Positions 2,341-51,069 of a stretch of DNA of 64,000 nucleotides are shown in pieces. The DNA comes from Flavisolibacter nicotianae. Its GTDB lineage: Bacteria; Bacteroidota; Bacteroidia; Chitinophagales; Chitinophagaceae. The notes under the pieces are model-generated. The model saw only the letters and a list, made by a program, of their open reading frames with translations. It was not told the origin of the DNA and did no database searches. Position 1 is the stretch's first letter; each line of letters begins with the position of its first letter. Both the position numbers and the translations under genes were made by a program. The stretch lies in the NCBI RefSeq assembly GCF_003628535.1, contig NZ_RBCI01000002.1, forward strand, positions 248,001-312,000, written 5' to 3'.

Positions 2341-2541
2341 GGACGGCAGACGGGAGACGTCAAACGTCAAATGAAAGGGGAAATAAAAGTCGTTTTAACA
2401 GGTGGCTGCCCCCTTTGCTTGTACTTGCGTTCGTCCGGGGGCGTTGCAGCATGAAGTTGGTTTTTACGTACAGGGCGGGCTCTCTCCATCTCGCGAACGG
2501 CTGTCTCCCGTTTGGCGTCTCACGTCTCACATCTCACGGTC
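2341..2541. repeat. Heptamer-unit inverted repeat, locus 1
   Basis: Left arm 2341-2377 and right arm 2503-2541 are approximate inverted copies. Each arm reads as tandem degenerate 7-mers (right arm: TCTCCCG, TTTGGCG, TCTCACG, TCTCACA, TCTCACG; left arm on the minus strand: TTTGACG, TTTGACG, TCTCCCG, TCTGCCG). It lies between two convergent genes and starts immediately after the stop at 2340. Confidence 0.7.
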
Positions 2542-2584
2542 CTTAGTCCTCCTTACAGGACCTGTGGTGATGGGCAAACCATTA

Positions 2585-3988
2585 TTACGCGGGGAAATAA
2601 ATTTCAAACGTGGTTCCCTGGTTCACTTCACTGTGCGCCTGGATAATGCCGTGGTGATTGTCCACTACTTTTTTGCAGATGGTTAAACCAATGCCGGTGC
2701 CCTTGTAGCCCTGGCCTGTATGCAGCCGTTGAAACAGGCGGAAAACGCGGTCGGCATGCGACTGTTCGAAGCCTAGTCCATTGTCACTGAAAAGCAGCTT
2801 GACGTAGCGCTTGCTGGTCTTGTGTTCCGGTATGCCAATTTCGGCCACGTTCACCAGCGTACTGTCGATGGTAATGACGGGTGGTGTTTTTTCCTTTTTG
2901 TACTTCAGCGAATTGCTAAGCAGGTTTTTGAAAAGCTGCTTGATCTGGAAGGGCAGGCCTTTGATCACCGGCAGGTTGGCAAACCGGATTTCGGCACCTG
3001 TTTCCACAATTTCTTCATCGAGGTTTTGCACCACTTCCGTGACGATCTGATTGAGATCCACTTCCTCGAATTTCTTTTCGCTGCTGCTCGTGTGCGAATA
3101 ATACAGAAGATCGTTGAGCAGGTTTTGCATACGGTCTGCCGACTGCTTGATCTTTTCAAAATGCACCTTGTTTTCCCTGTATGGCACCTCTTCGTCATTC
3201 TGCTCGATCATCGACGTATAGGTGAGGATTTTTCGCAGCGGTTCCTTCAGGTCGTGGCTGGCAATGTAGGTAAAGGAGTCCAGCTCTTTGTTGGACAGTT
3301 CCAGTTGATGGTTTTTCTGTTTAAGCTTGTTGTTCAGTTTTTTGAGGCGCACCAGGAGCTTTTGCGTCCGCTTCAGGTAGCGGCTGTTTTTTTCGTAAGA
3401 GAACACCAGGATCACCACGGCAAAAACAATCAGCAGGATAGCATAAAAAGGTGTGAGGAATGTATACCTGCGGTTTTCCTGCTCGCGGTTGCGGTGCCAT
3501 TCGTCGGCATGTACTTCAATGCCCTGCACGTAGTGCCGGATGCTATCCATGGTGGCTTTGGTTCGCCGCAGCAGCATCTGTTTCAGTGCCGGTGTGAGAC
3601 TGGGATCGTCAAATTGTGAAAACAGGTGAGTGAACGTGCCGAAGCGAACAGCGACAAAGGTTTGCAGCGCATTGAACCCCGGGCGTTCGTTCGGACCCGT
3701 CAATGCTTCGATGTCGTTCAGCAGGTTTTTGGAGCGGGCATAAGCGCCGTAATACGGGTCGAGAAAAAGCGAATCTTTTGTCAGCAAAAAACCACGCTGC
3801 GCCGTTTCGGTGTCGATCAGGGAACCGAGTAATTGTTCCAGTTTTATTTTCAGCAAATTGGTACGATTGATCTCCCGCTGCGATTCCAGAAGGAAGTGAA
3901 TCTGTTGGTACAACAGGGCTGAAAGTGCCAACAGCGCAAGGGCTGTAAGAAGGAAAATGCGTTTTGCGGTTTTGCCGGATAACTGCAT
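2585..3988 (-). CDS. CHASE3-type membrane sensor histidine kinase
   Basis: 467 residues. TM1 is at ~11-28 and TM2 at ~179-198, enclosing a ~150-residue periplasmic helical sensor with the CHASE3 signature (LIDTETAQRGFLLT at ~57-70). A coiled segment (RLKKLNNKLKQKNHQLELSN) leads to the dimerisation/phosphoacceptor site SFTYIASHDLKEPLRK, with His245 as the likely phosphorylated residue. The ATPase part has an N box (FKNLLSNSLKY), G1 (FSDNGLGF) and G2 (GTGIGLTI). This is the cyanobacterial-phytochrome/HWE-like layout common in Bacteroidota, where kinases often lack an adjacent response regulator; none is adjacent here. The signal sensed is unknown. It is transcribed divergently from the DUF2911 gene at 4276. 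Confidence 0.9.
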   Translation of the reverse strand: MQLSGKTAKRIFLLTALALLALSALLYQQIHFLLESQREINRTNLLKIKLEQLLGSLIDTETAQRGFLLTKDSLFLDPYYGAYARSKNLLNDIEALTGPNERPGFNALQTFVAVRFGTFTHLFSQFDDPSLTPALKQMLLRRTKATMDSIRHYVQGIEVHADEWHRNREQENRRYTFLTPFYAILLIVFAVVILVFSYEKNSRYLKRTQKLLVRLKKLNNKLKQKNHQLELSNKELDSFTYIASHDLKEPLRKILTYTSMIEQNDEEVPYRENKVHFEKIKQSADRMQNLLNDLLYYSHTSSSEKKFEEVDLNQIVTEVVQNLDEEIVETGAEIRFANLPVIKGLPFQIKQLFKNLLSNSLKYKKEKTPPVITIDSTLVNVAEIGIPEHKTSKRYVKLLFSDNGLGFEQSHADRVFRLFQRLHTGQGYKGTGIGLTICKKVVDNHHGIIQAHSEVNQGTTFEIYFPA

Positions 3989-4275
3989 GATGGTTTTTGG
4001 ATTTGGATGAATGCTTGTTGCCTAAGAACAAAAAACAAATCGTCATTCCATACACCACCGGTAACAGGGTATTCCACGATTCTTAAGCAGGGCGCAAAGA
4101 ACAAAAATGGTTCCAAATTCTTTTCCCGAATACAAGGCGGCGGATTCCTGTTCGATGGTTGATGATCGACGTTCGGCGGCAAGGATTTTTGCGGATAGCC
4201 CCAAAACCAGTCAACAAAAGCCTTGCGGTTTGCAACAGATTGTGAATATCTTTAAGCTTATCAAAATAGAAATTT

Positions 4276-4806
4276 ATGAGAAACAAACTTCTGGGCCTTT
4301 CTCTTGGTCTTGCGATTTTTACCACGTTTGCAGCCTGCGCACAGGGCGATAAGAGCAACCGTCCCAGTCCGCCTGCAACGGCCACGGGAAAAATCGGTAA
4401 CGCCACCATCACGATCAACTACAGCAGTCCTTCCGTTCGCGGTCGCAAGATCTGGGGCGAGCTGGTGCCCTACAACAAAGCCTGGCGGGCCGGCGCCAAC
4501 GAGGCAACCACGTTTGAAACAAGCCAGGCAATTAAAGTGGAAGGCAAAGACCTCCCGGCCGGCAAATACACCCTTTTTGCCGTTCCCGGCGAAAACGAGT
4601 GGCAGTTCATTTTCAACAGCGAAACGGGGCAGTGGGGTATCAAGCGCACAGGTGAGGCCAATTTCGACGCGGCTAAAAACGTGTTGACGGTTTCGGTAAA
4701 ACCCAAGGCGTCTTCAACCATGAACGAAAAGCTGCTCTACCAGGTTACCGGGCAGGGCTTTGTGCTGAAATGGGATCGCCTCGAGGTGCCGGTCAGCATC
4801 AGGTAA
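4276..4806 (+). CDS. DUF2911 exported protein (paralogue 1)
   Basis: 176 residues with an N-terminal signal. The sequence TTFAACAQG could be a lipobox (Cys21) or a signal peptidase I site just after it. The body matches DUF2911 as known from many Bacteroidota proteins: TITINYSSPSVRGRKIWG, LVPYNKAWRAGANEATTFE, LPAGKYTLFAVPGE and WQFIFNSETGQWG. The family's biochemical role is not established. A second, diverged member lies at 44620-45222 in this window. A possible -7 box (TATCTTTA) lies about 25 bases upstream of the ATG. The gene stands alone and ends in a terminator. Confidence 0.85.
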   Translation: MRNKLLGLSLGLAIFTTFAACAQGDKSNRPSPPATATGKIGNATITINYSSPSVRGRKIWGELVPYNKAWRAGANEATTFETSQAIKVEGKDLPAGKYTLFAVPGENEWQFIFNSETGQWGIKRTGEANFDAAKNVLTVSVKPKASSTMNEKLLYQVTGQGFVLKWDRLEVPVSIR

Positions 4807-4833
4807 AAAACGTTGCAAATTATTTTTTTGATC

Positions 4834-4857
4834 AAGTCTCCGGGAGGAGACTTTTTT
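4834..4857 (+). terminator. Intrinsic terminator after DUF2911 gene
   Basis: Stem AAGTCTCC / GGAGACTT with a 4-base loop followed by a T run, 27 bases after the stop codon. Confidence 0.85.
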
Positions 4858-4951
4858 GTTTTCCGGTGCCGCCGCCGGTTTGCCTTCACAGGCACAATTT
4901 GTGTTGACACAATACAAGACAAACAATTTGTAGACTGTAAAAAATTTGTAT

Positions 4952-5188
4952 ATGGCAGAACTTCATGTGCAAACGAAAAAAAACAATACGTCGAATTCGA
5001 TGTGGATCTGGATCGTACTGGCCCTGGTTATTGCGGGAGCGGTGATTTATTATCTCGTCAGTCGCAACAAAGCCGGTACGAACACGGCAGCGCCGGCCAA
5101 CACGACAGGTGCCATTGAACCGTCGGCCAATCCATTAAGTATCGAAAACATCCTGCAACAGCAAAACGCAGCGATGTACTTCTGTTAA
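4952..5188 (+). CDS. Small single-pass membrane protein, unknown function
   Basis: 78 residues starting at ATG 4952 (an upstream in-frame TTG at 4946 is less likely). A short polar N-terminus (MAELHVQTKKNNTSNS) is followed by one transmembrane helix at ~18-37 (MWIWIVLALVIAGAVIYYLV) with SRNK on its far side. The tail is Ala/Thr/Asn-rich and ends in Cys. I recognise no family. It lies 50 bases upstream of the PRC-barrel gene on the same strand, so the two are likely co-transcribed and could form a membrane-anchored pair (inference). Confidence 0.6.
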   Translation: MAELHVQTKKNNTSNSMWIWIVLALVIAGAVIYYLVSRNKAGTNTAAPANTTGAIEPSANPLSIENILQQQNAAMYFC

Positions 5189-5238
5189 GAACACATTTGA
5201 TAACCGAAAGCAGTGCTTTCAAAAACGACGAACAGATT

Positions 5239-6048
5239 ATGGATACGATGAAACACAGGCGTCTCCAGGAACTGGACCACTCCGATTTTGAACTGGTGAA
5301 AGGCGACCCCGACATCCGCGGCTGGGACGTGAAAAACGTCACGGGCCAAAAGATCGGTGAAGTGGAAGAGTTGATCGTGGATGCGCAAAAGAAAAAAGTG
5401 CGGTATATGGTAGTCGACCTCGACGATAACGAGCTGAAGCTGGAACACCGTAAAGTGTTGATCCCGATCGGCCTGGCAGAACTGCACAAAGAAGATGACG
5501 ATGTGCTGCTGCCCGCCGTCACCATTGACCAGTTAGGGGCCCTGCCTGCTTACGATAAAGACAGTCTCGACGAAGAGACCGAGCGGCGGGTCTGTAACTC
5601 GCTGGGCCGTGACACGCAGGCACTGGCCAGCCGCATCATGGCAGCAGAAGAGCGGCCGCAGGTTGCAAAGACAGCGGAACACGACAAGGCTCCTGCTACA
5701 AGCCAGGACGATTTTTACCAGCACGATTATTTCCACGACGACAATTTGTACAAACACCGCCTGCACGAAACAACGGCGGCAAAAACTAAGGAAGAATCCG
5801 AGTACGAAAAAGGCCTGCGGCTCTGGGAGATGCGCAGCGAAGGGGGCATCATAGCCGGCAGTGAGGCAAAGCAAAAAGAGCGGGAGGTGAATGAAGAAGC
5901 CCACCTCGAAAAAGTGCGCAACCGGCGCAAATCGTACGAAGAGCGGCGCGGCTACCCCGAACGGGAGCGGCAACGCGACGAGACCGATTATCGAAAAGAC
6001 AACACGATCATTGGCAGGATTCGCGACGAAGGATTGCGGGATGCCTAA
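5239..6048 (+). CDS. PRC-barrel domain protein
   Basis: 269 residues. Residues ~18-95 form a PRC-barrel: IRGWDVKNVTGQKIGEVEEL, then KVRYMVVDLD and KVLIPIGLAEL, the order seen in photosynthetic reaction-centre H-subunit-like and RimM-like barrels. The second half is strongly charged and low in hydrophobics (FYQHDYFHDDNLYKHRLHE, then Glu/Arg-rich segments to the end) and has no recognised domain. There is no signal peptide, so it is probably cytoplasmic. PRC-barrel proteins of this type are often linked to stress responses in soil bacteria; that role is only inferred. ATG 5239 is chosen over 5197 because the extra residues do not belong to the domain; ATG 5248 is also possible. Confidence 0.8.
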   Translation: MDTMKHRRLQELDHSDFELVKGDPDIRGWDVKNVTGQKIGEVEELIVDAQKKKVRYMVVDLDDNELKLEHRKVLIPIGLAELHKEDDDVLLPAVTIDQLGALPAYDKDSLDEETERRVCNSLGRDTQALASRIMAAEERPQVAKTAEHDKAPATSQDDFYQHDYFHDDNLYKHRLHETTAAKTKEESEYEKGLRLWEMRSEGGIIAGSEAKQKEREVNEEAHLEKVRNRRKSYEERRGYPERERQRDETDYRKDNTIIGRIRDEGLRDA

Positions 6049-6084
6049 ACAAAAGCGGTAGCACTGTCTGCCGCTTTTGTTTTG
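6049..6084 (+). terminator. Intrinsic terminator after PRC-barrel gene
   Basis: Stem ACAAAAGCGG / CCGCTTTTGT directly after the stop codon, followed by TTTG. The stem is long and perfect, so it probably works in both directions. Confidence 0.85.
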
Positions 6085-6189
6085 AATACAAGAAAAGCGG
6101 TGCGGATTTTTTTGCACGACGGGTTCGTAAAACCTGCAGTCAATTTTATTTGCTGACGTACATCAATGGCATTTAACCATACCCCGCAC

Positions 6190-6197
6190 TACCTTTG
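6190..6197 (+). promoter_or_regulatory. Bacteroidota -7 box (TACCTTTG) for the alcohol dehydrogenase gene
   Basis: TACCTTTG fits the TAnnTTTG consensus of the Bacteroidota primary sigma factor and lies 20 bases upstream of ATG 6218. The -33 element is weak (TGG near 6167). Confidence 0.5.
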
Positions 6198-6217
6198 CCC
6201 GTTTAACCCTTGATTGT

Positions 6218-7261
6218 ATGAGCAGAATAAAAGCCTTCGCAGCCTACGACGCTGCTTCTCCTTTACGTGATTATGAAATCAGCCGCCGCGAACCGGGTCC
6301 ACACGATGTGCAAATCGATATTTTATACTGTGGCGTGTGTCACTCCGACCTGCACCAGGTGCGCAACGAATGGGGCGGTACCGTTTACCCACTGGTTCCC
6401 GGTCACGAGATCGTGGGCCGTGTGTCGGCCGTTGGCAGCGATGTCACCCGGTTCAAAGTCGGCGACCTGGCCGGTGTGGGCTGCATGGTAGACAGTTGCC
6501 GCGAATGCCCCAAATGCAAAAAAGGGCTGGAGCAATATTGCGACAACGGCTTCACCGGTACCTACAATTCTTTCGAACGCAATGGCAAAACCCTTACCTA
6601 TGGCGGCTACAGCAAGGTGATCGTCACGACGGAAGATTTTGTGCTGAATATATCCGGCAAACTGGACCTGAAAGCCGTGGCGCCCCTTCTCTGTGCGGGC
6701 ATCACCACCTATTCGCCGCTGCGCCACTGGAAGGTGGGCAAGGGCCACAAAGTCGGTGTGCTGGGCCTTGGCGGATTGGGACACATGGCCGTGAAGTTCG
6801 CCGTTTCGTTTGGGGCGGAAGTAACCATGCTTTCGCACTCCCCCTCGAAGCAGAAAGATGCCGAACGCCTCGGCGCCCATCGCTTTGCCCTGACCTCCGA
6901 CAGCGAGACGCTGAAAAGCCTCGCCGGGTATTTTGATTTTATCATCGATACCGTGTCGGCACCGCACGATTACAATGTTTACCTCAACCTGCTCGATACG
7001 AACGGTGTGTTGATCTGCGTGGGAGCGCCACCCGACCCTGCGCAGGTAGCAGCCTTCAACCTCATTATGGAACGGCGCAGCATTGCCGGTTCGCTCATCG
7101 GCGGCATTCCCGAAACACAGGAAATGCTCGACTACTGTGCAGAGCACAACATTGTTTCCGATGTGGAGATGATCGCGATGCAGGATGTGAACGAGGCCTA
7201 CGAACGCATGCTCAAAGGCGACGTGAAATATCGCTTCGTGATCGACATGGCGACATTGTAA
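6218..7261 (+). CDS. Zinc-dependent NAD(P)-alcohol dehydrogenase, YahK/cinnamyl-alcohol type
   Basis: 347 residues, the usual length for this medium-chain dehydrogenase subgroup. Catalytic zinc ligands are visible in YCGVCHSDLH (Cys, near residue 40) and PGHEIVGRV (His-Glu). The structural zinc site is the four-Cys set in DSCRECPKCKKGLEQYC. The Rossmann motif is GVLGLGGLGHMAVKFA, and no acidic residue clearly follows it at the NAD-selecting position, which suits NADPH use. It should reduce aldehydes to alcohols in the cytoplasm. It is monocistronic, with its own -7 box and terminator. Substrate assignment is only to the YahK/CAD subfamily. Confidence 0.9.
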   Translation: MSRIKAFAAYDAASPLRDYEISRREPGPHDVQIDILYCGVCHSDLHQVRNEWGGTVYPLVPGHEIVGRVSAVGSDVTRFKVGDLAGVGCMVDSCRECPKCKKGLEQYCDNGFTGTYNSFERNGKTLTYGGYSKVIVTTEDFVLNISGKLDLKAVAPLLCAGITTYSPLRHWKVGKGHKVGVLGLGGLGHMAVKFAVSFGAEVTMLSHSPSKQKDAERLGAHRFALTSDSETLKSLAGYFDFIIDTVSAPHDYNVYLNLLDTNGVLICVGAPPDPAQVAAFNLIMERRSIAGSLIGGIPETQEMLDYCAEHNIVSDVEMIAMQDVNEAYERMLKGDVKYRFVIDMATL

Positions 7262-7280
7262 GTATTTTTCTTTGCTGTGA

Positions 7281-7309: not shown

Positions 7310-7327
7310 GTTTGTGGCAATGGGAGC

Positions 7328-7440
7328 CGTCAGCCATTTGCGATTCGCTGTCAGTTGTCAGCCAATAGTTATCAAATCTCCATGACTGCTTACTACCTAC
7401 TGTCAACTGTCAACTGTCCATTGCCGAATGCTAACTGCAA
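7328..7440. repeat. Heptamer-unit inverted repeat, locus 2 (longest)
   Basis: About 110 bp of degenerate 7-mers. The right half contains the exact tandem CTGTCAA CTGTCAA followed by CTGTCCA, TTGCCGA, ATGCTAA. The left half contains the inverse phrase (GTCAGTT GTCAGCC). Arms 7328-7380 and 7381-7440 can pair. It sits between two same-strand genes, after the terminator at 7281 and before the TIR operon. Confidence 0.7.
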
Positions 7441-7530: not shown

Positions 7531-8712
7531 ATGCGCCACAAAACAGCTTACTGCCTTGCCCTGCTGCTTTCACTGTTTTTTGGTTTTGCCTCTGTTGCGC
7601 AGGCCGTCGCCGGCGTAACCGTGGGATCATCACGCCAGATCAGAACAACCAAAAGCGGGAACAAAGTGGATGTGCTGAAAACCGAGTTGCTTCGGTTCAA
7701 CATTTGCCCGACACGCGGTACACTGGATCTGCTTGAAAAGCTCAACCCGCAATTAAAAACCGATACCTCCGTTGCGGAAGGAACTTCCGTTATACTGCCC
7801 CTGCTCAACGATGTGGACGATGCCGTGCAGCAGAAAATGACGGCCTTCCTGGCAGATGATAACGCGGTGAGCAAAACAGGGAATGCCCTGTTGCTGAAAA
7901 ACAGCAAGGCCCTGCGCACCGTTCTTACGCCCTGGCTGAAAAACCGGCCGGATTCCAGCCCGTGGATGATCGAATTACGCGACATCAATTTGCTCTTGCA
8001 AAAAATAACGGGGCAAAAAACGCCTGTGCTCCGGAAGTATCACACCGATATTCTCAACAGCGAAATCGAGCGGTTCACCCGTTACCTTTCCGGTCAGCCG
8101 GCGAAGCGTCCGCCGGTGGGCTTCGATACAGCTTATGTCCGTTCGTTCCGGGATTATTTTTACCAGGTTGCCGGGCCTTATTATTCCGTTTTGCCATCCA
8201 TGGGAATGCGGTCAATGCGAACAGGCGGTTCGGGACTTGCCGCGGTCAAGCCGGCTCGCTTTCTTTTTAACGGGCACCTGCCCGACGATGCGGCTACCGC
8301 TGTAGATGTATGGATTCATGTACTGGTGCCCGTCCTTATGCAAAGCAAGTTCAAATACATCGATTCGATGAATCAATACTGGGTGTATTGCCTGAGTCAA
8401 TTTCAATTCGATAACCTGAACCAGAAGCTGGCAGCAATGACTCCTACGGAGAAAAGAACCCTGGCGGTGGACAGGCTCCGAACGTTCATTACCGTTGCCG
8501 ACCTGGAACGGGTAAGGGCTCTTTGCCCTTCGCCGGCTTCGGTGACGGCCAAGCGCATCGACACCCGGTTTGCTTACCATTTTATCGTGGTTTCGCTGAA
8601 CAAAAAAAACATTCTCATTCACGACTGGCTCGACCTGGCAAAGTATTCTTTTCAATTGCAGGACGGGAAATATGGCCTGGGCCTGTATCAAAACATTAAC
8701 TGGGCTCCATGA
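7531..8712 (+). CDS. Exported protein with LysM-like segment, partner of the TIR protein
   Basis: 393 residues. The signal peptide is MRHKTAYCLALLLSLFFGFA with cleavage near SVAQA; ATG 7531 is preferred, though ATG 7504 would add nine residues. Residues ~52-91 (LLRFNICPTRGTLDLLEKLNPQ...VAEGTSVILP) have the pattern of a LysM carbohydrate-binding repeat: a start strand, two helices and a closing Gly-Thr-x-Val-x-LP strand. The remaining 300 residues, rich in aromatics (YFYQVAGPYYSVLPS, WVYCLSQFQFDNL), match nothing I know. The stop overlaps the start of the TIR gene (ATGA), so the two are translationally coupled. A periplasmic sensor or wall-binding role is inference. Confidence 0.6.
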   Translation: MRHKTAYCLALLLSLFFGFASVAQAVAGVTVGSSRQIRTTKSGNKVDVLKTELLRFNICPTRGTLDLLEKLNPQLKTDTSVAEGTSVILPLLNDVDDAVQQKMTAFLADDNAVSKTGNALLLKNSKALRTVLTPWLKNRPDSSPWMIELRDINLLLQKITGQKTPVLRKYHTDILNSEIERFTRYLSGQPAKRPPVGFDTAYVRSFRDYFYQVAGPYYSVLPSMGMRSMRTGGSGLAAVKPARFLFNGHLPDDAATAVDVWIHVLVPVLMQSKFKYIDSMNQYWVYCLSQFQFDNLNQKLAAMTPTEKRTLAVDRLRTFITVADLERVRALCPSPASVTAKRIDTRFAYHFIVVSLNKKNILIHDWLDLAKYSFQLQDGKYGLGLYQNINWAP

Positions 8713-9815
8713 GTCGACCACGCAATTTCAAACTGCGCCTGCTGCTGGTATCTTTTGCCGTTACGGTGGCGCTTTCGTTTTTGGCCCGCCTGTTTGCGCC
8801 GGCCGGTTTAATCAGTTGGCGGGAAACAGCTGCTGCCGCACTGGTTTCACTGCTTGTGTTTCATGGCCTCACCGTCTTCTTCGAAAACAAAAGCAGGAAG
8901 GTGGTTGTGCGATACCTTTTGCTGGCGCTCCTGGTTCTTTCTTCCGGCATTTATTTTTACGCGGCCAAAACCCTCCTGTGTGACGATGTCGTTGTCGGCA
9001 CAACGTTGAGCGAAGACTTTGCCAACGAACGAAGCCTCGCCATGAACCAGGGGCGCACCAAATGCGACATCTTCGGCTACGTAGCCGAATCGGACCCGCG
9101 GCGGATCTGGACGGATGTGGATGATTCCAACCTGAAGCTGCGGGTTTCGTACGTTGCTTTCGTGGTTTTCCTGATCGCCTTTTTCACGCATCTGACAGAA
9201 GAGATTTTGCGGCGCAGCCTGTTCAAAGACAGCAGTGGTTTTTTGGAGGATGGCGATGCCGTTTTTATTTCCTACAACCACGGGAATGCGGCAGAGGCTA
9301 TGCAGGTAAGAAATGAGCTGGTCAAAAACGGCATCAAAACCATCATCGATACCGAATCGATGCCGGCCGGCTACGCGATTGAAAAATTCATTGCGGAGTC
9401 CATTCAACAGTCACAGGTTATTTTATCGATTGTGTCGGAAGAAAGCATTCTTTCCGGGTGGGTGGCAACGGAAACCATCAACACGTTTTTTCTCCAGTTG
9501 TTCGACACGGACAAAAAGTTTATCGCCTGCTACCTCGACGAATCGTTTCTGAAGGACGATTTTCCGGAAAAAGCCTACGCCGCCATTGATGCAAAACTGG
9601 AAGCCATCAATCAAAAAATTGATGCGGGCAACCGGATAATGGTCAACCGCAGCGACCTCACAGATCAAAAAGACCGGCTGTTCAAACTCCGGCAAAATTT
9701 AGCTGATATTCTGCGTCGGCTAAAGGCCTCTAAATGCATCGATATCCGTGGTGAAAAATTCCGCGAAAATGTACCGCCACTGGTAAAAGAGATCAAGGCG
9801 GTGCTTGAGGCGTAA
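8709..9815 (+). CDS. Membrane-anchored TIR-domain protein
   Basis: 368 residues. Four hydrophobic helices come first (~10-30, 36-58, 67-89, 146-163), with a ~55-residue loop between TM3 and TM4 (contains DPRRIW at ~130). A cytoplasmic TIR domain follows at ~182-280: DAVFISYNHGN (strand A), TIIDTESMPAG, SQVILSIVSEESILSGWVATE. Glu255 in the W-x3-E context is at the position of the catalytic Glu of NAD-cleaving TIR domains. The tail is helical and ends with IRGEKF...PPLVKEIKAVLEA. In bacteria such proteins often deplete NAD as immunity effectors; here that is inferred. It overlaps the exported LysM-like gene by 4 bases. Confidence 0.8.
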   Translation: MSRPRNFKLRLLLVSFAVTVALSFLARLFAPAGLISWRETAAAALVSLLVFHGLTVFFENKSRKVVVRYLLLALLVLSSGIYFYAAKTLLCDDVVVGTTLSEDFANERSLAMNQGRTKCDIFGYVAESDPRRIWTDVDDSNLKLRVSYVAFVVFLIAFFTHLTEEILRRSLFKDSSGFLEDGDAVFISYNHGNAAEAMQVRNELVKNGIKTIIDTESMPAGYAIEKFIAESIQQSQVILSIVSEESILSGWVATETINTFFLQLFDTDKKFIACYLDESFLKDDFPEKAYAAIDAKLEAINQKIDAGNRIMVNRSDLTDQKDRLFKLRQNLADILRRLKASKCIDIRGEKFRENVPPLVKEIKAVLEA

Positions 9816-9817
9816 AG

Positions 9818-9876
9818 AGCAGTCAGCAATCGGCAATTGAATTTCCCCGACTGCTGACTGCCAACAACTGCCTGTT
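9818..9876. repeat. Heptamer-unit inverted repeat, locus 3
   Basis: GCAGTCAGCA near 9820 pairs with TGCTGACTGC near 9853; 7-base spacing of related words (GCAGTCA, GCAATCG, GCAATTG; GACTGCT, GACTGCC). It fills the gap between convergent stops at 9815 and 9892 and may serve as a two-way terminator. Confidence 0.65.
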
Positions 9877-18920: not shown

Positions 18921-18950
18921 TGCCATCTTAAAAATGATGTATAGAATTTA

Positions 18951-19022
18951 GCAAGCAGTAGGCCGTATGCAGTTGGCAGTCGGATTGCCCCTTGCCTGTT
19001 GCTTCCTGCCGACTTGTTCCTA
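18951..19022. repeat. Heptamer-unit inverted repeat, locus 4
   Basis: Left part GCAAGCA GTAGGCC GTATGCA GTTGGCA GTCGGAT; right part TGCCTGT TGCTTCC TGCCGAC TTGTTCC. The halves are partly complementary (GGCAGTCGG against CCTGCCGAC). It lies at the beginning of a 430-base gap (18921-19352) that otherwise holds no gene I can support. Confidence 0.6.
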
Positions 19023-23072: not shown

Positions 23073-23109
23073 AACCGCATCCCGGGCCTTGGCCCCTCGA
23101 TCCCCTAAA

Positions 23110-23436
23110 GGCCTCCCCAAACCCCTCCAGGGAGGGGCTTACAACCGCACAGACCCTTGCTTTTGTACGATACTTCAAAGCCTCCATCATACTTTAAGGT
23201 GGAGGCTTTTTGCTGCCGTTGGGCGTCCTCGCCAACGGCTTTCTTTTTGCCCCGGCGGGGCATCGTGTTAATAGAAAGAGAGAGTAGTAAAGAGAACGAA
23301 GCTCCGTAGGAGCGGAATAAATTTTATGGTGCCGGCGACAAAATATCTATGAAGCTCCCGTTGCGTCGCACTCTTCAGCGTTCGGAACGCAGCCGGGCAA
23401 AAAAGAATTCCATCCCTCGAAGGGATGGAATTCTTC
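23110..23436 (+). repeat. Modular convergent-gene repeat, copy A
   Basis: A chain of hairpin modules in order: GGCCTCCCCAAACCCC... (23110); AGCCTCC / GGAGGCTTTTT terminator-like (23178-23212); GCCGTTGG / CCAACGGC; GCCCCGGCGGGGC followed by ATCGTGTTAATAGAAA; GCTCCGTAGGAGCG; and CCATCCCTCGAAGGGATGG (23411-23429). The same modules in the same order occur at 55157-55501 (minus strand) and most of them at 49503-49836 (minus strand). Here the element follows the helicase gene and faces the convergent gene ending at 23509. Confidence 0.85.
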
Positions 23437-23508
23437 TGCAAACAAACGCATCTTGCATAAGCCGGTCCTGTGCGTAGCAGTCCCTTCTGCTTGAGGAGAG
23501 GGTAAGGT

Positions 23509-28927: not shown

Positions 28928-28978
28928 TGAGTAACGAGTAATGAATAGAGCAATCTCTAATTCACTATTCAACGTTGG
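28926..28978. repeat. Heptamer-unit inverted repeat, locus 5
   Basis: GAATAG near 28943 pairs with CTATTC near 28965 inside 7-mers GTAACGA GTAATGA ATAGAGC and CTCTAAT TCACTAT TCAACGT. It begins at the stop codon of the M28 gene and precedes its terminator. Confidence 0.6.
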
Positions 28979-30240: not shown

Positions 30241-30312
30241 TGCCGGATAGCAGGATATGGGGCTATTTTCTGTCAACAATATCTCAATATTCCAATCTCC
30301 CAATATCCTGCC
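30241..30312. repeat. Heptamer-unit inverted repeat, locus 6
   Basis: GCAGGATATGGGG (30250-30262) pairs with CCCAATATCCTGCC (near 30299-30312). The right part reads as 7-mers TCTCAAT ATTCCAA TCTCCCA ATATCCT. Located between same-strand genes ending at 30226 and starting at 30440. Confidence 0.65.
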
Positions 30313-30439
30313 ATGAAACTGAAACCGGGCTAAATCCTCCGGCCGGCGAAATTTCTTCTGTTATAGCCGCACTTTCTTCTGCCGAAACCTGTTTCTTTGC
30401 TGATCGGTAAAACGTTTCACCAGACCCCCTTTAGACTTT

Positions 30440-30922: not shown

Positions 30923-31000
30923 TGGCAGGCGGGACTTGTCAAACGTCAAATGTGAAACTGTGGACTCTTTAGCCTGCGATGTACTCACGTTTCACCGGTT
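30923..31000. repeat. Heptamer-unit inverted repeat, locus 7
   Basis: Minus-strand reading of 30931-30960: TTTCACA TTTGACG TTTGACA. Partner phrase ACTCACG TTTCACC at about 30983-30996. It begins at the stop codon of the SET gene. Confidence 0.6.
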
Positions 31001-31084: not shown

Positions 31085-31140
31085 CGTGAATCGGTTATTG
31101 GATCTTCACTATTGCTAATTGCTTACTGTAAATTACCTGC
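31085..31140. repeat. Heptamer-unit repeat, locus 8 (single arm)
   Basis: Seven consecutive related 7-mers: TGAATCG GTTATTG GATCTTC ACTATTG CTAATTG CTTACTG TAAATTA. No convincing inverted arm is seen, though locus 7 lies 85 bases away. Confidence 0.5.
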
Positions 31141-41388: not shown

Positions 41389-41412
41389 TGAAGACATGGC
41401 ACGAAACCGTGG

Positions 41413-41447
41413 CGTGGATAATGAATAATGAATTGTAAGAGTTGCAT
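41413..41447. repeat. Heptamer-like repeat, locus 9 (weak)
   Basis: GGATAAT GAATAAT GAATTGT AAGAGTT shows 7-base spacing of related words like locus 5, but no second arm. Upstream of the Uma2 gene. Confidence 0.35.
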
Positions 41448-42102: not shown

Positions 42103-42186
42103 GAGACCTGAAACGATAAACGTGAAACAGGAGTGCATTCTAAGGTAAAATGTCTCCAGTTTCACGTCTCACATTTGTCGTTTTGC
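42103..42186. repeat. Heptamer-unit inverted repeat, locus 10
   Basis: Left arm on the minus strand reads TTTCACG TTTATCG TTTCAGG; right arm (42158-42180) reads TTTCACG TCTCACA TTTGTCG. GAAACAGGAG near 42124 pairs with CTCCAGTTTC near 42154. Between convergent stops at 42097 and 42196. Confidence 0.75.
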
Positions 42187-43170: not shown

Positions 43171-43278
43171 TGCCTTTCCATTTTAGGCGGCAAATGTAGG
43201 CCAAAAAAAAATCCCGCCTTTGTGTAGACACACGCTGCGGGACAGTTTACACACCAAAACTAACGAGTTGATCCGTGA

Positions 43279-43350
43279 GGCAGAATTCGGCTAAACGCCA
43301 AAGACTTTTTTGTTTCGTGTTTGACGTTTCTCGTTTGCCATTTCTTGCCT
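43279..43350. repeat. Heptamer-unit inverted repeat, locus 11
   Basis: Right arm TTTCGTG TTTGACG TTTCTCG TTTGCCA TTTCTTG (43313-43347). Left arm near 43280-43302 reads TTTGGCG TTTAGCC on the minus strand. It sits in a ~180-base gap between two minus-strand genes. Confidence 0.6.
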
Positions 43351-46890: not shown

Positions 46891-46926
46891 AGCGGCGCAA
46901 GCCGTTCGTGCCTCGCTAATCTTTCC

Positions 46927-46934
46927 TACTTTTG
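46927..46934 (+). promoter_or_regulatory. Bacteroidota -7 box (TACTTTTG) for psd
   Basis: Perfect TAnnTTTG match 12 bases upstream of ATG 46947; no strong -33 element seen. Confidence 0.5.
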
Positions 46935-46946
46935 CTGACTGTTATT

Positions 46947-47603
46947 ATGAAAATTCACAAAGAAGGTTTCGGATCCATTTTGGTTGCCGCTGTTGTTGCC
47001 GCCCTCGTCATTGTACCGACGGTGCTGTTCGTCTTGCCATCTTACCCCGTTCTCGGCTGGCTGACAATTGCCGTGATCATTGCATTGTTCCTGTTTATCA
47101 TTTCATTTTTCCGCATTCCTGCCCGCTCCCATGCAAGCGGCGACGACCTGATCGTTGCCCCCTGCGATGGAACCGTGGTGGTGATTGAAGAAGTGGATGC
47201 TGATGAATATTTCACCGACCGCCGCCTGCAGCTTTCCATTTTTATGAGCCCGCTGAATGTGCACGTGAACCGCAACCCGGTGAGCGGCGATGTGATGTAC
47301 AGTCAATACCACAAGGGAAAATACCTGGTTGCCTGGCATCCCAAATCATCTACCGAGAATGAGCGCCACTCGGTGGTGTACAAGCAGGACGGAAAGGAAA
47401 TGCTGGTGAAGCAGATCGCCGGTGCGCTGGCCAAACGCATTGTCAATTACCTGAAGCCCGGCGACAAAGTAGAGATGGGCGAGGAGATGGGCTTTATCAA
47501 GTTTGGCTCCCGTGTGGACCTCCTGTTGCCGCTTGGTACAAAGATCGACGTGAAGATCAACCAGAAGGTGAAAGGCGGTGTAACGGTGCTGGGAAAATGG
47601 TAA
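46947..47603 (+). CDS. psd: Phosphatidylserine decarboxylase, short (PSD-A/archaetidylserine) type
   Basis: 218 residues from ATG 46947. Two N-terminal membrane helices (ILVAAVVAALVIVPTVLFVLP and WLTIAVIIALFLFIISFF) are followed by the decarboxylase domain: LIVAPCDGTVVVIEEVD, LSIFMSPLNVHVNRNPVSG (with the catalytic His of NVHVNR), and GFIKFGSRVDLLLPLG. The Gly-Ser in FGSRVD is the self-cleavage site that yields the pyruvoyl group. It converts phosphatidylserine to phosphatidylethanolamine, the main lipid of the phylum, on the cytoplasmic membrane. The short length without the proteobacterial N-terminal domain is normal for Bacteroidota. Confidence 0.93.
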   Translation: MKIHKEGFGSILVAAVVAALVIVPTVLFVLPSYPVLGWLTIAVIIALFLFIISFFRIPARSHASGDDLIVAPCDGTVVVIEEVDADEYFTDRRLQLSIFMSPLNVHVNRNPVSGDVMYSQYHKGKYLVAWHPKSSTENERHSVVYKQDGKEMLVKQIAGALAKRIVNYLKPGDKVEMGEEMGFIKFGSRVDLLLPLGTKIDVKINQKVKGGVTVLGKW

Positions 47604-47649
47604 GCAGAGCGGATTAAATTTCCTACCTTACTTATTCAAATAACGGGTT

Positions 47650-47817
47650 ATGAAAAAATACTTACTCGTTTTTATTGCGCTTTTCCTCACAGCCGCCGTG
47701 GTGACTGCCACGGTGCTGAACAGCAGCAAAAAAGTCAATGCCAAAAAAGAGGCCCGGAAAGAATGCACGTACAAACGTTCGCATTGTTCGCGGTCGCTGT
47801 CGGTAGCCTGCTATTGA
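47650..47817 (+). CDS. 55-residue exported Cys-containing peptide, unknown function
   Basis: ATG 47650 to TGA 47815-47817. Lys-Lys then one hydrophobic segment (YLLVFIALFLTAAVVTATVL), which is a signal peptide or anchor. A short basic part follows (KKVNAKKEARKECTYKRSHC), ending in SRSLSVACY, with three Cys (39, 46, 54). A terminator just 4 bases beyond the stop supports a real gene end. No family recognised. It begins 46 bases after psd on the same strand and probably shares its transcript. Confidence 0.55.
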   Translation: MKKYLLVFIALFLTAAVVTATVLNSSKKVNAKKEARKECTYKRSHCSRSLSVACY

Positions 47818-47821
47818 CATG

Positions 47822-47850
47822 AAGTCCCGCTGCCGGCGGGACTTTTTGTT
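47822..47850 (+). terminator. Intrinsic terminator ending the psd transcript
   Basis: Stem AAGTCCCGC / GCGGGACTT with a 5-base loop and T-rich tail. Confidence 0.9.
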
Positions 47851-47948
47851 TTACAGCAAAATGGTATTCGGCAGATAAAGCAGGTGCGCAAGCACCTTTT
47901 TAATTTTTTGCCTGTGCACAAAATCCCATCTTTTTTTGCCGGAATATT

Positions 47949-48644
47949 TTACAGCAAATCTTTCAGTTCATTCAAATGGTAAATGGTGTAGGTGGGCTGA
48001 ATGTCCTGCGCCACGCGGTTGTAGTTGACATGCACGGCATCCATGCCCACGGTAAAGGCGCCTGCAATATCCACATCCAGGGTGTCGCCGATCATCAGGC
48101 TTTCTTCCACGGCGGCGCCGGTCAGGTTCAACGCGTACTCGAAAATTTCTTTTTGGGGTTTGAGGCTGTTGCTTCCTTCCGATGTGACAACCACTTTAAA
48201 AAAAGGCGCAAGGCCGGAGCTTTGCAGCTTGGCATGCTGGGTTTCTTCAAAGCCATTGGTGATGAGGTGCAGACGGTAGCCTTTTTCTTCCAGGTAGCGC
48301 AGCACCTCGATGGTGTCGGGAAAAAGTATGGTGCGGGTGGGCAGCAGTTGCAAAAACAGTTCATTCATCTGCTGTGCCAGCTCTTCATCGTCGATATTGA
48401 AATCGAGCAGGGATAGCCACATGCGCTTGAGGCGCAGCTCGTCCTGCCGGATGTTGCCCGTGCGGTATGCGGCCCATAACCGGTCGTTGTGTGCCAGGTA
48501 ATTTCGATAGAAGAGATCAAAATCGTGAATGCCTTTCTCCGGCAGGTGCAGGTCAACGTGCAGTTGTTGCAACGTCATGCGGGCATTGGCGTCAAAATCC
48601 CAAAGTGTATGATCGAGGTCGAAAAACAGGTGTTTGTATCTCAA
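47949..48644 (-). CDS. yjjG: YjjG-family HAD nucleotidase (noncanonical pyrimidine nucleotidase)
   Basis: 231 residues, usual YjjG length. HAD motif I is FFDLDHTLWDFD (Asp nucleophile, with the Trp-Asp-Phe characteristic of YjjG). The helical cap includes FYRNYLAHNDRLWAAYRTG. Motif II is LITNGFEETQ, motif III SLKPQKEIF (Lys), and motif IV MIGDTLDVDIAGA. It dephosphorylates nucleoside monophosphates, with a house-cleaning role against unusual pyrimidines. Cytoplasmic. Divergent from the SDR gene at 48744 across a heptamer inverted repeat. Confidence 0.9.
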   Translation of the reverse strand: MRYKHLFFDLDHTLWDFDANARMTLQQLHVDLHLPEKGIHDFDLFYRNYLAHNDRLWAAYRTGNIRQDELRLKRMWLSLLDFNIDDEELAQQMNELFLQLLPTRTILFPDTIEVLRYLEEKGYRLHLITNGFEETQHAKLQSSGLAPFFKVVVTSEGSNSLKPQKEIFEYALNLTGAAVEESLMIGDTLDVDIAGAFTVGMDAVHVNYNRVAQDIQPTYTIYHLNELKDLL

Positions 48645-48647
48645 AAT

Positions 48648-48721
48648 AAAAATTCAAAAGTCAAAAGTAATAAGTCATCCTGGTTAAGATGCTTTTTGAA
48701 TTTTTACTTTTGCCTTTTTCA
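48648..48721. repeat. Heptamer-unit inverted repeat, locus 12, containing a -7 box
   Basis: Left part AAATTCA AAAGTCA AAAGTAA TAAGTCA (about 48650-48678); right part TTTTTGA ATTTTTA CTTTTGC CTTTTTC (48693-48720). The arms pair over most of their length. TACTTTTG at 48705-48712, a perfect -7 box, is inside the right arm. It lies between the divergent genes starting at 48644 and 48744. Confidence 0.7.
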
Positions 48722-48743
48722 AACAAACTAAACCCTTGCCAAT

Positions 48744-49445
48744 ATGAATGCCGTCATTACCGGTGCGTCCCGCGGAATTGGAAAAGCCCTGGCCCAAATC
48801 TTTGCCCTGCATGGCTACAATTTGTTTCTCTGTTCCAAAACCGAAAGCCATTTGCTGGCAACCATCGAAGAACTCAAGGCGGCTTTCCCTGCTGTTTCCA
48901 TTGATGGCAAGGCGCTCGACCTGGGACAAAAAACCGGCGCCAAGCTATTTGGTGAATGGGTGCTGAACAATACCGATTCGGTTGATGTGCTCATCAACAA
49001 CACCGGTACGTTTATCCAGGGCAATGTCTCCGACGAGCCCGACGGCGCCCTGGAGGAAATGCTGGGCGTCAATCTTTTTAGTGCCTACCATACCACACGG
49101 GCCATCCTCCCAAAAATGAAGGCGCAAAAAAGCGGGCATATTTTTACGATCTGTTCCATTGCCAGCCTCGCGGCCTATCCCGGCGGCGGCGCCTACGGCA
49201 TCAGCAAATATGCCTTGCTTGGCTTTACCCGCAACTTGCGGGCAGAACTGAAAGAGCACGGCATTAAAGTAACGGCCGTCATTCCCGGTGCCGTGTACAC
49301 CGACAGTTGGAAAGGCAGTGGTGTGGCCGAAAGCCGGATCATGGAAACGGAGGATATTACAAAAATGATCTTTGCCGCCACGCAACTTTCGCCCCAGGCG
49401 GTCGTGGAAGATATTGTGCTTCGTCCGCAACTGGGAGACCTGTAG
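48744..49445 (+). CDS. SDR-family oxidoreductase
   Basis: 233 residues. MNAVITGASRGIGKALAQIF (cofactor-binding Gly motif), VLINNTGTF (NNTG in place of NNAG, with Thr), IFTICSIASLAA (Ser) and YGISKYALLGF (YxxxK). The C-terminal part ETEDITKMIFAATQLSPQAVVEDIVLRPQLGDL is typical of the 3-oxoacyl-reductase-like SDRs of Bacteroidota. NAD(P)-dependent reductase of unknown substrate. The -7 box lies within the upstream heptamer repeat; a modular repeat follows the gene. Confidence 0.87.
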   Translation: MNAVITGASRGIGKALAQIFALHGYNLFLCSKTESHLLATIEELKAAFPAVSIDGKALDLGQKTGAKLFGEWVLNNTDSVDVLINNTGTFIQGNVSDEPDGALEEMLGVNLFSAYHTTRAILPKMKAQKSGHIFTICSIASLAAYPGGGAYGISKYALLGFTRNLRAELKEHGIKVTAVIPGAVYTDSWKGSGVAESRIMETEDITKMIFAATQLSPQAVVEDIVLRPQLGDL

Positions 49446-49502
49446 TGTCAAGGGGGAATCAGCTACAGGCAATGGAGCGGGGCTGGATTGCTTAGAACTT
49501 AT

Positions 49503-49836
49503 TTCAAATTGAAACGTTGTCAGGAATGGATGGCGCCCCTGACCAGCAATGTTCAGAACGGACAAGTGTGCGACGCAACGGAAGTCAAATAGATATTCTG
49601 TTGCTGGTAACAAAAAAATATGTCGCTCCTGCGGAGCTAAGTTGTCTCTTCTATGAACTTTTTCTATTAACACGATGCCCCTCCGGGGCAAGAGGGAAAA
49701 GCCGTTGGCAGGAACGCCCAACGGCAGCAAAAGCCTCCATCAAAATGACTGATGGAGGCTTCGTTGTATCGTGCAAAGGCAAGGATCTGTGTTTGGCGCT
49801 CCCTCTCCTTGAGGAGAGGGCCGGGGTGAGGTGTCA
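49503..49836 (-). repeat. Modular convergent-gene repeat, copy B
   Basis: Read on the minus strand: CCCTCTCC / GGAGAGGG module (49801-49820), AGCCTCCATC / GATGGAGGCTT (49731-49761), GCCGTTGGGCG / GCCAACGGC, GCCCCGGAGGGGCATCG with TGTTAATAGAAA, and GCTCCGCAGGAGCG, with GACTTCCGTTGCGTCGCAC beyond. Same module order as copies A and C, but the first module differs and the CCATCCCTCGAAGGG hairpin is reduced to a trace. It lies between convergent stops at 49445 and 49834. Confidence 0.8.
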
Positions 49837-50961
49837 CGGCCTTTCCTGGGCCCGCAGCCAGCGTTCGGGAAGCTCGTTGTTGCCGGCGGCCAGGTAGTCC
49901 TTGTACGAGCAGGCAATGAACTGCTTGTCGGGCAACTGCATCCACCAGCGGCCGGTTTTTTTACTTTGCAAAAACACGGTATCCACTTCCGAGAGGGCCA
50001 GGTGAAACTCGTTGAACAAATCCCTTTCCTCCAGCTTGGCTTCCCGCTTGTTGCGGCTAAAGCCGTCGAGAAAATACCAGAGCATCTGGCTGATTTGTTT
50101 GGCCGTCAGGTGCTCCACGTCCTGCTCCGGACGATAGCCGTAAAGGCCAATGCTGGTGAGGTTGGGACTCATGCCGGCGTATTGCATCAACACACAGGCC
50201 TCCTCGCCGTTCAGGCCATTGGGGGTAACATGGTTGGCGGGTGCAAACGACCGGGCAATGGCCGAAATGTCGAACGACATGATGCTGCAGTTACGGATCA
50301 CCGGCTCCATTTCTTCGATGTGTTCTTTTACCGTGCCCACCCGGAAACAATCAAAGCGCAGCTTGTCCATGGTTTCCAACATGCGGGGATGCACATAGTA
50401 GCTTTGAAAGCCGATGTGGTTGTAGTGCTGCATGAAGTTGGGCTCGGCCGTCAGCAGCTCCATCAAAAAATTCTCGGCACGGAAGGGTGACTCCAGGTTG
50501 ATGTCGATCAGGGCATCCACGCCAACGGCATCGATGGCTTTTTTGTCTTCGGCAAAGGCATGGTACTGTGCCAGCGTAAGGTCGTGTGAACCGCCCAGCA
50601 CGATCACCGTTTTATTCGCCTGCTGCAGTTCGTGGATCACCATCTTCAGCGCCGCGTACGTATCGGTGTTGGCTTTTCCTGTTTTCACATCGCCGATGTC
50701 GGCCAGGCGAACATCCTGGTGCCAGTAAAAAAGATTGTAAAACTCGCTGCGAATGGAAAGCGGCGCCCCACTCGGGTGCAGCAGGGCCGCACCCCGCTGG
50801 TCGGTACAACCCACCAGCACAACGTCCACATCATCCAGGTCCGGGAACTCTTCATCGTACACTTTAATGGCCTTGCCCACCTGGCCCTCTTTGTAACCCG
50901 CATCGCCACTGATCTCGGAGCGGTTCACAGGATTTAGAAAATCTAAAATTGAATCGTACAT
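49834..50961 (-). CDS. Arginase-family protein with altered metal site
   Basis: 375 residues from ATG 50961 (a TTG at 50979 lies within a repeat). The ureohydrolase fold is recognisable: VDVVLVGCTDQRGA, TVIVLGGSHDLTLAQYHA (His ligand), DALIDINLE where arginases have DAHxD, and SIMSFDISAIARSFAP where they have SFDxDxxDP. Two of the usual six metal-ligand positions therefore look replaced (the His of DAH by Leu, the second Asp of SFDxD by Ser). Bacteroidota homologues are often named formimidoylglutamase or arginase, and this substitution pattern may be general there. Activity is uncertain: it may be catalytically changed or inactive. Single gene; a repeat at each end. Confidence 0.75.
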   Translation of the reverse strand: MYDSILDFLNPVNRSEISGDAGYKEGQVGKAIKVYDEEFPDLDDVDVVLVGCTDQRGAALLHPSGAPLSIRSEFYNLFYWHQDVRLADIGDVKTGKANTDTYAALKMVIHELQQANKTVIVLGGSHDLTLAQYHAFAEDKKAIDAVGVDALIDINLESPFRAENFLMELLTAEPNFMQHYNHIGFQSYYVHPRMLETMDKLRFDCFRVGTVKEHIEEMEPVIRNCSIMSFDISAIARSFAPANHVTPNGLNGEEACVLMQYAGMSPNLTSIGLYGYRPEQDVEHLTAKQISQMLWYFLDGFSRNKREAKLEERDLFNEFHLALSEVDTVFLQSKKTGRWWMQLPDKQFIACSYKDYLAAGNNELPERWLRAQERP

Positions 50962-50971
50962 GCTCTGCTTT

Positions 50972-51069
50972 TTGGTCAAACGTCAGATATCAGACGTGAA
51001 ACATTGGAAGCCGCGAAGGTAAAGTGAACTCCTTTTCACATTTTATATTTCACGTTTGCCGTTTCACTT
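50972..51069. repeat. Heptamer-unit inverted repeat, locus 13
   Basis: Minus-strand reading of the left arm: TTTCACG TCTGATA TCTGACG TTTGACC. Right arm: TTTCACA TTTTATA TTTCACG TTTGCCG TTTCACT. The right arm runs into the stop codon of the GH13 gene at 51064-51066, and the left arm abuts the arginase-family start. Confidence 0.75.

What the first reader, a model, noticed from the sequence alone, without database searches (positions are those of the whole stretch)
2341..51069. A family of intergenic inverted repeats built from degenerate 7-bp units at about a dozen gene junctions
At least eleven gaps (2341, 7328, 9818, 18951, 28926, 30241, 30923, 42103, 43279, 48648, 50972; weaker at 31085 and 41413) hold sequences that read as tandem imperfect heptamers, usually as two inverted arms. 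Examples are TTTCACG TCTCACA TTTGTCG, CTGTCAA CTGTCAA CTGTCCA, and TCTCAAT ATTCCAA TCTCCCA. Three word families recur: TTTCACG-like, CTGTCAA/GCAGTCA-like and AATGAATA/TATTG-like. Most begin within a few bases of a stop codon. The 7-bp period does not match a codon, a helix turn or a normal terminator, and each copy differs in sequence while keeping the period and the symmetry. That suggests an element maintained by copying, slippage or selection on RNA structure. Heptanucleotide short tandem repeats (STRR) are known from filamentous cyanobacteria; I know of no description in this phylum.
Basis: partly seen in the sequence, partly recalled or inferred. Interest (0 to 1): 0.75.

Follow-up and report, generated by a model that had tools for sequence, protein, structure and literature searches.

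The report
Dispersed hairpin repeats of 7-bp units
Many gaps between genes in this bacterium hold a mirror-image pair of short repeated 7- or 8-letter words; these look like small dispersed elements that differ between sister species, and similar word arrays turn up in many unrelated bacterial groups.

Summary
The core observation is real. In 440 kb of the genome, intergenic period-7 clusters number 55 against 3.2 in shuffles, period 8 17 against 3.3. In four congeners 50 of 92 array loci carry the same word inverted in the same gap, against 43 of 552 cross-locus controls. Loops are homologous between loci in at least two word families. Of 143 orthologous gaps of two congeners, 33 have arrays in both and 19 in one only; 15 gaps carry inverted arms in both species but with different words. 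Best reading: dispersed non-autonomous palindromic elements whose arms are tandem 7/8-mers. The mobiliser is unknown: RAYT transposases, integron integrase and loss of SbcD were tested and not supported. Known relatives: inverted GGGAATC heptamers of Xanthomonas, cyanobacterial heptamers, TAACTGA repeats. New here: many coexisting word families, 8-bp units, conserved loop cores, word turnover with matched arms, one word family seen in many phyla.

The parts
2341..2540 (.). Element, A-type words (CGTCAAA/CGTGAGA); left array 2341-2377, right array 2508-2540, long loop
   Evidence: whole gap: period p=0.005, IR p=0.016
7325..7427 (.). Heptamer arrays CTGTCAA/TTGTCAG type (7325-7345, 7389-7427); no heptamer inverted partner found
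   Evidence: period p=0.005; Nostoc csR1.1 is a similar word
9816..9861 (.). Element, GCAGTCA/GCAATCG words; arms 9819-9833 and 9847-9861
   Evidence: period p=0.005, IR p=0.016
18949..19022 (.). Probable degenerate element, GCAGTAG/GCAGTTG words; arms 18949-18978 and 18993-19022 at 67% match
   Evidence: on a trimmed stretch (period p=0.027, IR p=0.01); not significant on the whole 939-bp gap
28928..28950 (.). Array AATGAGTAACGAGTAATG; no significant inverted partner
   Evidence: period p=0.045 on the whole gap
30245..30314 (.). Element, 8-bp ATATTGG words; arms 30247-30267 and 30294-30314; loop resembles those of three other loci of the genome
   Evidence: period p=0.015, IR p=0.016
30936..30996 (.). 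A-type array with the A-family loop core; right arm reduced
   Evidence: model R1, a training member; period p=0.010; IR not significant
41412..41439 (.). Single array ATAATGA; no partner
   Evidence: trimmed (period p=0.017); whole gap p=0.075
42111..42173 (.). Element, A-type words, with the A-family loop core on the minus strand
   Evidence: (model R1, a training member), 78 on a trimmed stretch (period p=0.017, IR p=0.01); in the whole 845-bp gap another hairpin scores higher
43270..43339 (.). Degenerate A-type element (GTTTGACGTTTCTCGTTTGCC)
   Evidence: E=0.015, not a training member; not significant
48645..48721 (.). Element, AGTCAAA words; arms 48648-48679 and 48688-48719, in a divergent gap as called here
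   Evidence: period p=0.005, IR p=0.016
50974..51058 (.). Element, A-type words; arms 50977-51001 and 51034-51058
   Evidence: E=0.017, not a training member; period p=0.035, IR p=0.016

Best explanation
The loci are copies of several families of dispersed, non-autonomous, palindromic intergenic elements. One element is two inverted arms around a loop; each arm is a tandem run of degenerate 7- or 8-bp units of one word family, usually purine-rich in the 5' arm on either strand, and in some families a short family-specific core lies between the arms. SHOWN: genome-wide excess, inverted same-word arms within a locus, homologous cores between some loci and species, lineage-specific abundance of word families, presence/absence differences and word change at orthologous gaps. 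INFERRED: whole elements are occasionally copied to new gaps in trans by an unidentified function; afterwards each locus evolves by loss and gain of 7/8-bp units and by copying of one arm from the other (template switching on a hairpin during replication), which keeps both arms in one word family. They survive where they do little harm, most often in convergent gaps and least in divergent ones. A specific function is not shown.
For: Period and inverted-arm excess. Loop homology: 26 of 105 pairs of A-family loops score at least 9 vs 1.95 shuffled, max 5; with six bases trimmed from each end 25 pairs at 7 or more vs 6.95, max 13; four loci of the own genome with ATATTGG-like words share a core close to GGTAACAGAAAATATCCC, and a GTGAGTG-family loop is shared by one locus each of G021 and G006. 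Word sharing between four congeners: 88 identical cross-genome pairs vs 8.1 scrambled, max 17 of 500. Copy number differs by lineage: GTSARTG 21-mers G021 104, G024 76, G006 43, G000 4, G003 0 (reversed control 17, 16, 2, 0, 0); GTSARAC 15-mers 96 in G024 to 0 in 9 of 18 congeners. Unit order: GAG-GAA-CAG is 9 of 26 triplets in G021, but 1 of 12 in G006 (no test of significance, overlapping windows counted). One clean indel of a complete element, about 85 bp, between G006 and G021. 19 of 52 array-bearing orthologous gaps have arrays in one species only (in some the other species has a decayed array below threshold). 15 orthologous gaps have inverted arms in both species with different words. 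Occupancy of gaps up to 500 bp: convergent 26 of 118, tandem 54 of 380, divergent 12 of 115.
Against: No mobiliser found: Y1/RAYT genes do not track A-array abundance and are not flanked by arrays. No target-site duplication could be defined; the one clean indel could be a deletion. 45 of 60 inverted elements had no detectable loop relative in the sample, and two of the five loop clusters (3 and 2 members) join unlike words and are probably spurious. Within the A family, the arms of one locus match each other no better than arms of other loci (16.96 vs 16.80), so arm-to-arm copying is not visible there, nor for the 11 same-word orthologues (15.41 vs 15.23). Outside the A family, words are not shared across phyla above scrambled words (6 vs 10.5 of 178; 3 vs 1.8 of 32).
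Confidence: 0.45

Rival explanations
1. Purely local mutation: 7/8-bp replication slippage makes arrays from chance seeds and hairpin template switching makes the second arm; nothing is copied between loci.
For: Unit-number and word differences at orthologous gaps; at gap offset 273066 of the joined G021:C22 stretch, 5 double changes, all complementary (4 of 4 with G006 as reference); 7 and 8 bp and their multiples are the enriched periods.
Against: Homologous loop cores at several loci and in two species; vocabulary shared among congeners.
Confidence: 0.22
2. Functional hairpins kept by selection: bidirectional transcript ends, mRNA 3' protection or a protein/RNA binding site.
For: 21 and 23 of 26 A elements fold with z below -3 on the two strands (30 mononucleotide shuffles each); complementary double changes 22 vs 4.8 expected in 674 paired positions, both directions pooled; some orthologous elements well conserved (38534 at 0.93; 381138 arms nearly identical with a diverged loop).
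Against: Not nearer stop codons than random; terminator-like structures as common without arrays as with: convergent 28 of 81 vs 7 of 26, tandem 37 of 298 vs 4 of 53, divergent 3 of 99 vs 1 of 12; present in divergent gaps; array columns of 26 retained elements 0.82 identical vs 0.77 beside them and 0.79 in array-free gaps (lenient alignment, retained set chosen by array identity, so biased upward); 130 one-sided changes (32 leaving G-T) vs 22 complementary, against 64 (13) vs 25 in ordinary hairpins; A words absent from 9 of 18 congeners.
Confidence: 0.22
3. REPINs moved by RAYT (Y1) transposases.
For: Two inverted repeats around a variable spacer in gaps; Y1_Tnp genes in 14 of 18 congeners.
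Against: 20 Y1 loci (68 kb, some with weak Y1 matches) hold 4 arrays (0.06/kb) vs 0.13-0.33/kb in the four sampled genomes; G011, G019 and G022 have 7, 5 and 6 Y1 matches and no A arrays, G005 none and 2.
Confidence: 0.04
4. Chance or base composition.
For: Applies to 31085 and perhaps 43279 and 18951.
Against: and reversed-pattern controls (0 in 14 of 15 genomes, 58 in G026).
Confidence: 0.01

Closest known systems
GGGAATC heptamer repeats of Xanthomonas, many as inverted pairs (PMC4692102; passages read)
   Same: Heptamer tandem arrays, mostly intergenic; 70 and 75 inverted pairs in two species; 83% kept in the same gene context with length changes; fewer between divergent than convergent genes.
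   Different: One G-rich word able to form G-quadruplexes; here many word families coexist, 8-bp units occur, some loops have family cores, and words change between species at the same gap.
Cyanobacterial STRR / GGGGA(T/C)T heptamer repeats (STRR recalled; passages in PMC4692102 and PMC2408588)
   Same: Degenerate intergenic heptamers, several words in one genome (ttgtcagttgtcagttgtca 44 times in Nostoc 7120).
   Different: Only a few paired (inverted) repeats reported for the GGGGA(T/C)T set in Nostoc.
TAACTGA direct repeats (MacGregor 2015, PMC4679880; abstract and passages)
   Same: Heptamers in gaps; Beggiatoaceae, cyanobacteria, five Bacteroidetes.
   Different: Direct repeats of one fixed word, in the main genome mostly just upstream of starts; one-base variants rarely repeated; one 'indirect' repeat in that genome.
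REPINs (Bertels and Rainey 2011, PMC3116915; passages)
   Same: Dispersed inverted doublets around a spacer, extragenic, proposed non-autonomous.
   Different: REP units are not heptamer arrays (as recalled); RAYT association, central to REPINs, not met here.

Membership tests
Inverted heptamer repeats (Xanthomonas type) | Tandem 7-bp units over-represented in gaps | tested here: met
   55 vs 3.2
Inverted heptamer repeats (Xanthomonas type) | Paired arrays in opposite orientation | tested here: met
   50 of 92 vs 43 of 552
Inverted heptamer repeats (Xanthomonas type) | G-tract unit able to form quadruplex | tested here: not met
   read by eye from the word list: the commonest words have at most short G runs (a few, such as GTTTGGG, have three); no quadruplex test was run
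TAACTGA direct repeats | The word TAACTGA, direct orientation, near-invariant | tested here: not met
   not among the 70 heptamer words of the sampled stretches of four congeners; arrays degenerate and inverted
REPIN/RAYT | Two inverted units with spacer forming a hairpin | tested here: met
REPIN/RAYT | Cognate RAYT gene next to copies of the repeat | tested here: not met
   4 arrays in 20 Y1 loci, below background; two of them in one G021 locus (L231)
MITE | Terminal inverted repeats | tested here: met
   with variable arm length
MITE | Target-site duplication | tested here: inconclusive
   one clean indel, no duplication seen by eye; the other gaps looked too diverged
MITE | Parent insertion sequence with the same ends | not tested
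   only Y1 transposases were checked
Integron attC sites | Integron integrase in the genome | tested here: not met
   1 of 18 congeners over cut-off (G004), not the window's genome
Rfam RNA families | Match at gathering score | tested here: not met
   window 0 matches; in 20 A loci 6 matches, none at the gathering score (plant microRNA and plastid hairpin models)

The most novel reading that the evidence does not exclude
A general class of bacterial selfish or quasi-selfish DNA, not REPIN and not IS-derived: palindromic elements whose arms are self-renewing 7/8-bp arrays, present in many phyla, spreading by a replication- or repair-linked copying process with no dedicated transposase, and drifting through word space while arm-to-arm copying keeps the palindrome.
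Probability: 0.3. Interest if true: 0.8.

Novelty: new variant of a known kind. Interest (0 to 1): 0.6.

Why it matters
Between a tenth and a quarter of the gaps in the sampled stretches carry such arrays (57 of 313, 25 of 235, 74 of 273, 59 of 263), so they shape intergenic evolution. Heptamer repeats have been noted separately in cyanobacteria, Xanthomonas and Beggiatoaceae; word change with matched arms at orthologous gaps gives a way to test how they arise, and one word family in many phyla asks whether one process makes them.

Tried and rejected
RAYT/Y1 transposase as mobiliser: counts do not follow A arrays and the genes are not flanked by arrays. Loss of the hairpin nuclease SbcD as permissive cause: SbcD_C found in 0 of 18 congeners, and TIGR00619 over cut-off in 120 of 395 Bacteroidota, none of them among the 12 genomes with A arrays; but array-rich G025, G026 and G029 of other phyla have it (array-rich G027, G031, G032 and G035 have none over cut-off), and congeners without A arrays lack it too; dropped. 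Integron attC. Known RNA. RNAalifold on the core alignment found no consensus structure, so R1 is a sequence-only model. Attachment to stop codons and replacement of terminators. Cross-phylum shared vocabulary: holds only for the A words, which were the search key; an even Bacteroidota sample shows the three-unit A pattern in only 12 of 395 genomes. C-G unit switching by a special mutation: the C-G share of changes is 0.09 inside and outside arrays of retained elements. Single-linkage clustering of words (118 of 120 in one cluster) is uninformative at that word density. Limits: the gene caller is a simple hexamer script; one search used stretches trimmed by me, repeats it on whole gaps; the 'vertical-like' rule is lenient; one search counts each gap in both directions; cores were oriented by eye, so the objective test is; the inverted arrays were read by eye, without shuffles. 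Two sequences were left out of the alignment (win50972, L212).
Full report
WHAT WAS CHECKED. The window is G000:C2:248001-312000 of a 6.09-Mb, 70-contig genome, Bacteroidota by inference from Por secretion-tail domains. I took 440 kb of that contig including the window, 400 kb of congener G003, and 561 and 506 kb of congeners G021 and G006, and called genes with a simple hexamer script.

THE OBSERVATION. Against 20 dinucleotide shuffles, the gaps of the own genome have 55 clusters with at least 11 of 14 matches at lag 7 (expected 3.2, s.d. 1.9), 17 at lag 8 (3.3) and 30 at lag 14 (2.5); genes show 13 at lag 7, beside 11, 5, 5 and 9 at lags 5, 8, 10 and 11. G003 has 16 at lag 7 and 16 at lag 8, each against about 4. 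New stretches of G021 and G006, not used to set the rule, give 86 and 47 arrays at lag 7, 34 and 35 at lag 8, and 3 to 12 at the other lags from 4 to 15 that are not multiples of 7 or 8 (no shuffles). So the period is 7 or 8, not 7 alone. 57 of 313 gaps (own), 25 of 235 (G003), 74 of 273 (G021) and 59 of 263 (G006) hold arrays. 31085 fails.

ARMS. For 92 array loci (gaps up to 500 bp, four genomes), the same word in opposite orientation (11 of 14 or better) is found elsewhere in the same gap in 50, in the same orientation in 2; in gaps of other array loci the rates are 43 of 552 and about 7%. The 5' arm is the purine-rich one in 43 of 50. Array gaps are 26 of 118 convergent, 54 of 380 tandem and 12 of 115 divergent ones.

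LOOPS ARE NOT ALL RANDOM. Of 26 A-family elements (GTSARAC words) found by pattern, 9 have a loop of 29-32 bp, with the rough pattern AGAGNCTTT...AAGTTCACT. An orientation-free test on the 15 loops of 25-50 bp gave 26 of 105 pairs at score 9 or more, 1.95 in shuffles, at most 5; trimmed by six bases at each end, 25 pairs at 7 or more vs 6.95, at most 13. Four own-genome loci with ATATTGG-like words, among them window 30241, share a core close to GGTAACAGAAAATATCCC, and a GTGAGTG-family loop recurs between G021 and G006; 45 of 60 elements had no detectable loop relative in the sample. A sequence model of the A core finds window 30943-30996 and 42113-42173 (both training members) and, weakly, 43270-43327 and 50990-51044, which were not. 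Some loops instead enclose what looks like an ordinary terminator (sequences).

TURNOVER BETWEEN SPECIES. Over 143 orthologous gaps of G021 and G006, 33 have arrays in both, 14 only in G021, 5 only in G006 and 91 in neither; a first set of 41 gaps gave 7, 2, 5 and 27. Some of the one-sided cases have a decayed array in the other species. In 26 gaps where both species have an inverted element, arms match better within a species than across (14.92 vs 12.33, Wilcoxon p=0.003). The difference comes from the 15 gaps whose words differ (14.57 vs 10.20; 14 up, 0 down, 1 tie); the 11 with the same words show none (15.41 vs 15.23). Because both elements of a gap were chosen for matched arms, this contrast is partly built in; what it does show is that 15 gaps carry matched arms in both species on different words, by joint change or by replacement of the whole element. 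Gap offset 273066 shows joint change at base level: five complementary double changes, left GATAAGGTGATAA to GAAAATGTGAAAA with the partner arm changed to match. Overall 22 complementary double changes were counted where 4.8 were expected, in 674 paired positions with both directions pooled, but 130 one-sided ones; ordinary hairpins in array-free gaps give 25 vs 3.0 expected and 64 one-sided. After removing 26 retained elements, 7 gaps of 117 are occupied in both species, 2.9 expected with length matching, p=0.007. One complete element of about 85 bp is a clean indel. Word families differ in abundance by lineage. The unit order GAG-GAA-CAG recurs in G021 (9 of 26 triplets) but not in G006 (1 of 12), which hints that arms are copied as blocks; no significance test was made.

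OTHER PHYLA. 15 genomes behind these loci hold 2 to 725 copies of the two-unit pattern; the reversed pattern gives 0 in 14 of 15 and 58 in G026. Stretches taken without regard to repeats show, by eye, other 7-bp inverted arrays in G025, G026, G029 and G031 (Desulfobacterota and Chloroflexota by record title); those of G032 and G035 show no lag-7 excess over other lags. The caution: these genomes were chosen by the A words, and other words are not shared with our genus above scrambled controls. Architecture, more than vocabulary, is what recurs.

MECHANISM. I favour dispersal of whole palindromic elements plus in-place renewal of arms. Dispersal rests on cores, shared vocabulary and lineage-specific abundance; renewal on word change with matched arms. 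Copying in trans and hairpin template switching are inferred. Within the A family, arms of one locus match no better than arms of different loci, which gives no support to arm-to-arm copying there. Positional and terminator tests do not support a 3'-end role, and array columns of retained elements are about as diverged as the rest of the gap (0.82, 0.77; array-free gaps 0.79).

KNOWN OR NEW. Inverted heptamer pairs are in print for Xanthomonas (PMC4692102, passages), direct heptamers for Beggiatoaceae, cyanobacteria and five Bacteroidetes (PMC4679880, abstract and passages), and several heptamer words for Nostoc (PMC2408588, passages). Among the rows listed by seven library searches I saw no paper on inverted heptamer elements in Bacteroidota or across phyla; the lists were cut at 3-20 rows and the library lacks most subscription journals. 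I therefore file it as a new variant of a known kind.

Noticed in passing
window 23073-23508, 49446-49833, 55114-55504 (and own contig 402333-402815): A second dispersed intergenic repeat, matching over about 170-390 bp at 75-81% identity, three of the four copies in convergent gaps, with internal hairpins; not built of heptamers.
   Followed up: no
L166-L174 (G021), gaps 60883-61850 and 88567-89437 of the joined stretch; L175-L180 (G006), gap 95765-97182 of the joined stretch: Another dispersed intergenic repeat of about 400 bp around a hairpin like TTTTCCACCTTTT...AAAAGGTGGAGCC, 73-75% identical between copies.
   Followed up: no
18 congeneric genomes: No SbcD C-terminal domain (PF12320) detected in any of 18 congeners, although the control Bacteroides genome has it.
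   Followed up: partly
L200 18286 and 18975 (Thermoanaerobaculia G035): Two nearly identical copies of a whole A-word element about 700 bp apart, differing towards the end of the pyrimidine arm.
   Followed up: no
window 8709-9815: A TIR-domain protein (PF13676) downstream of a 402-aa protein with no Pfam match.
   Followed up: no
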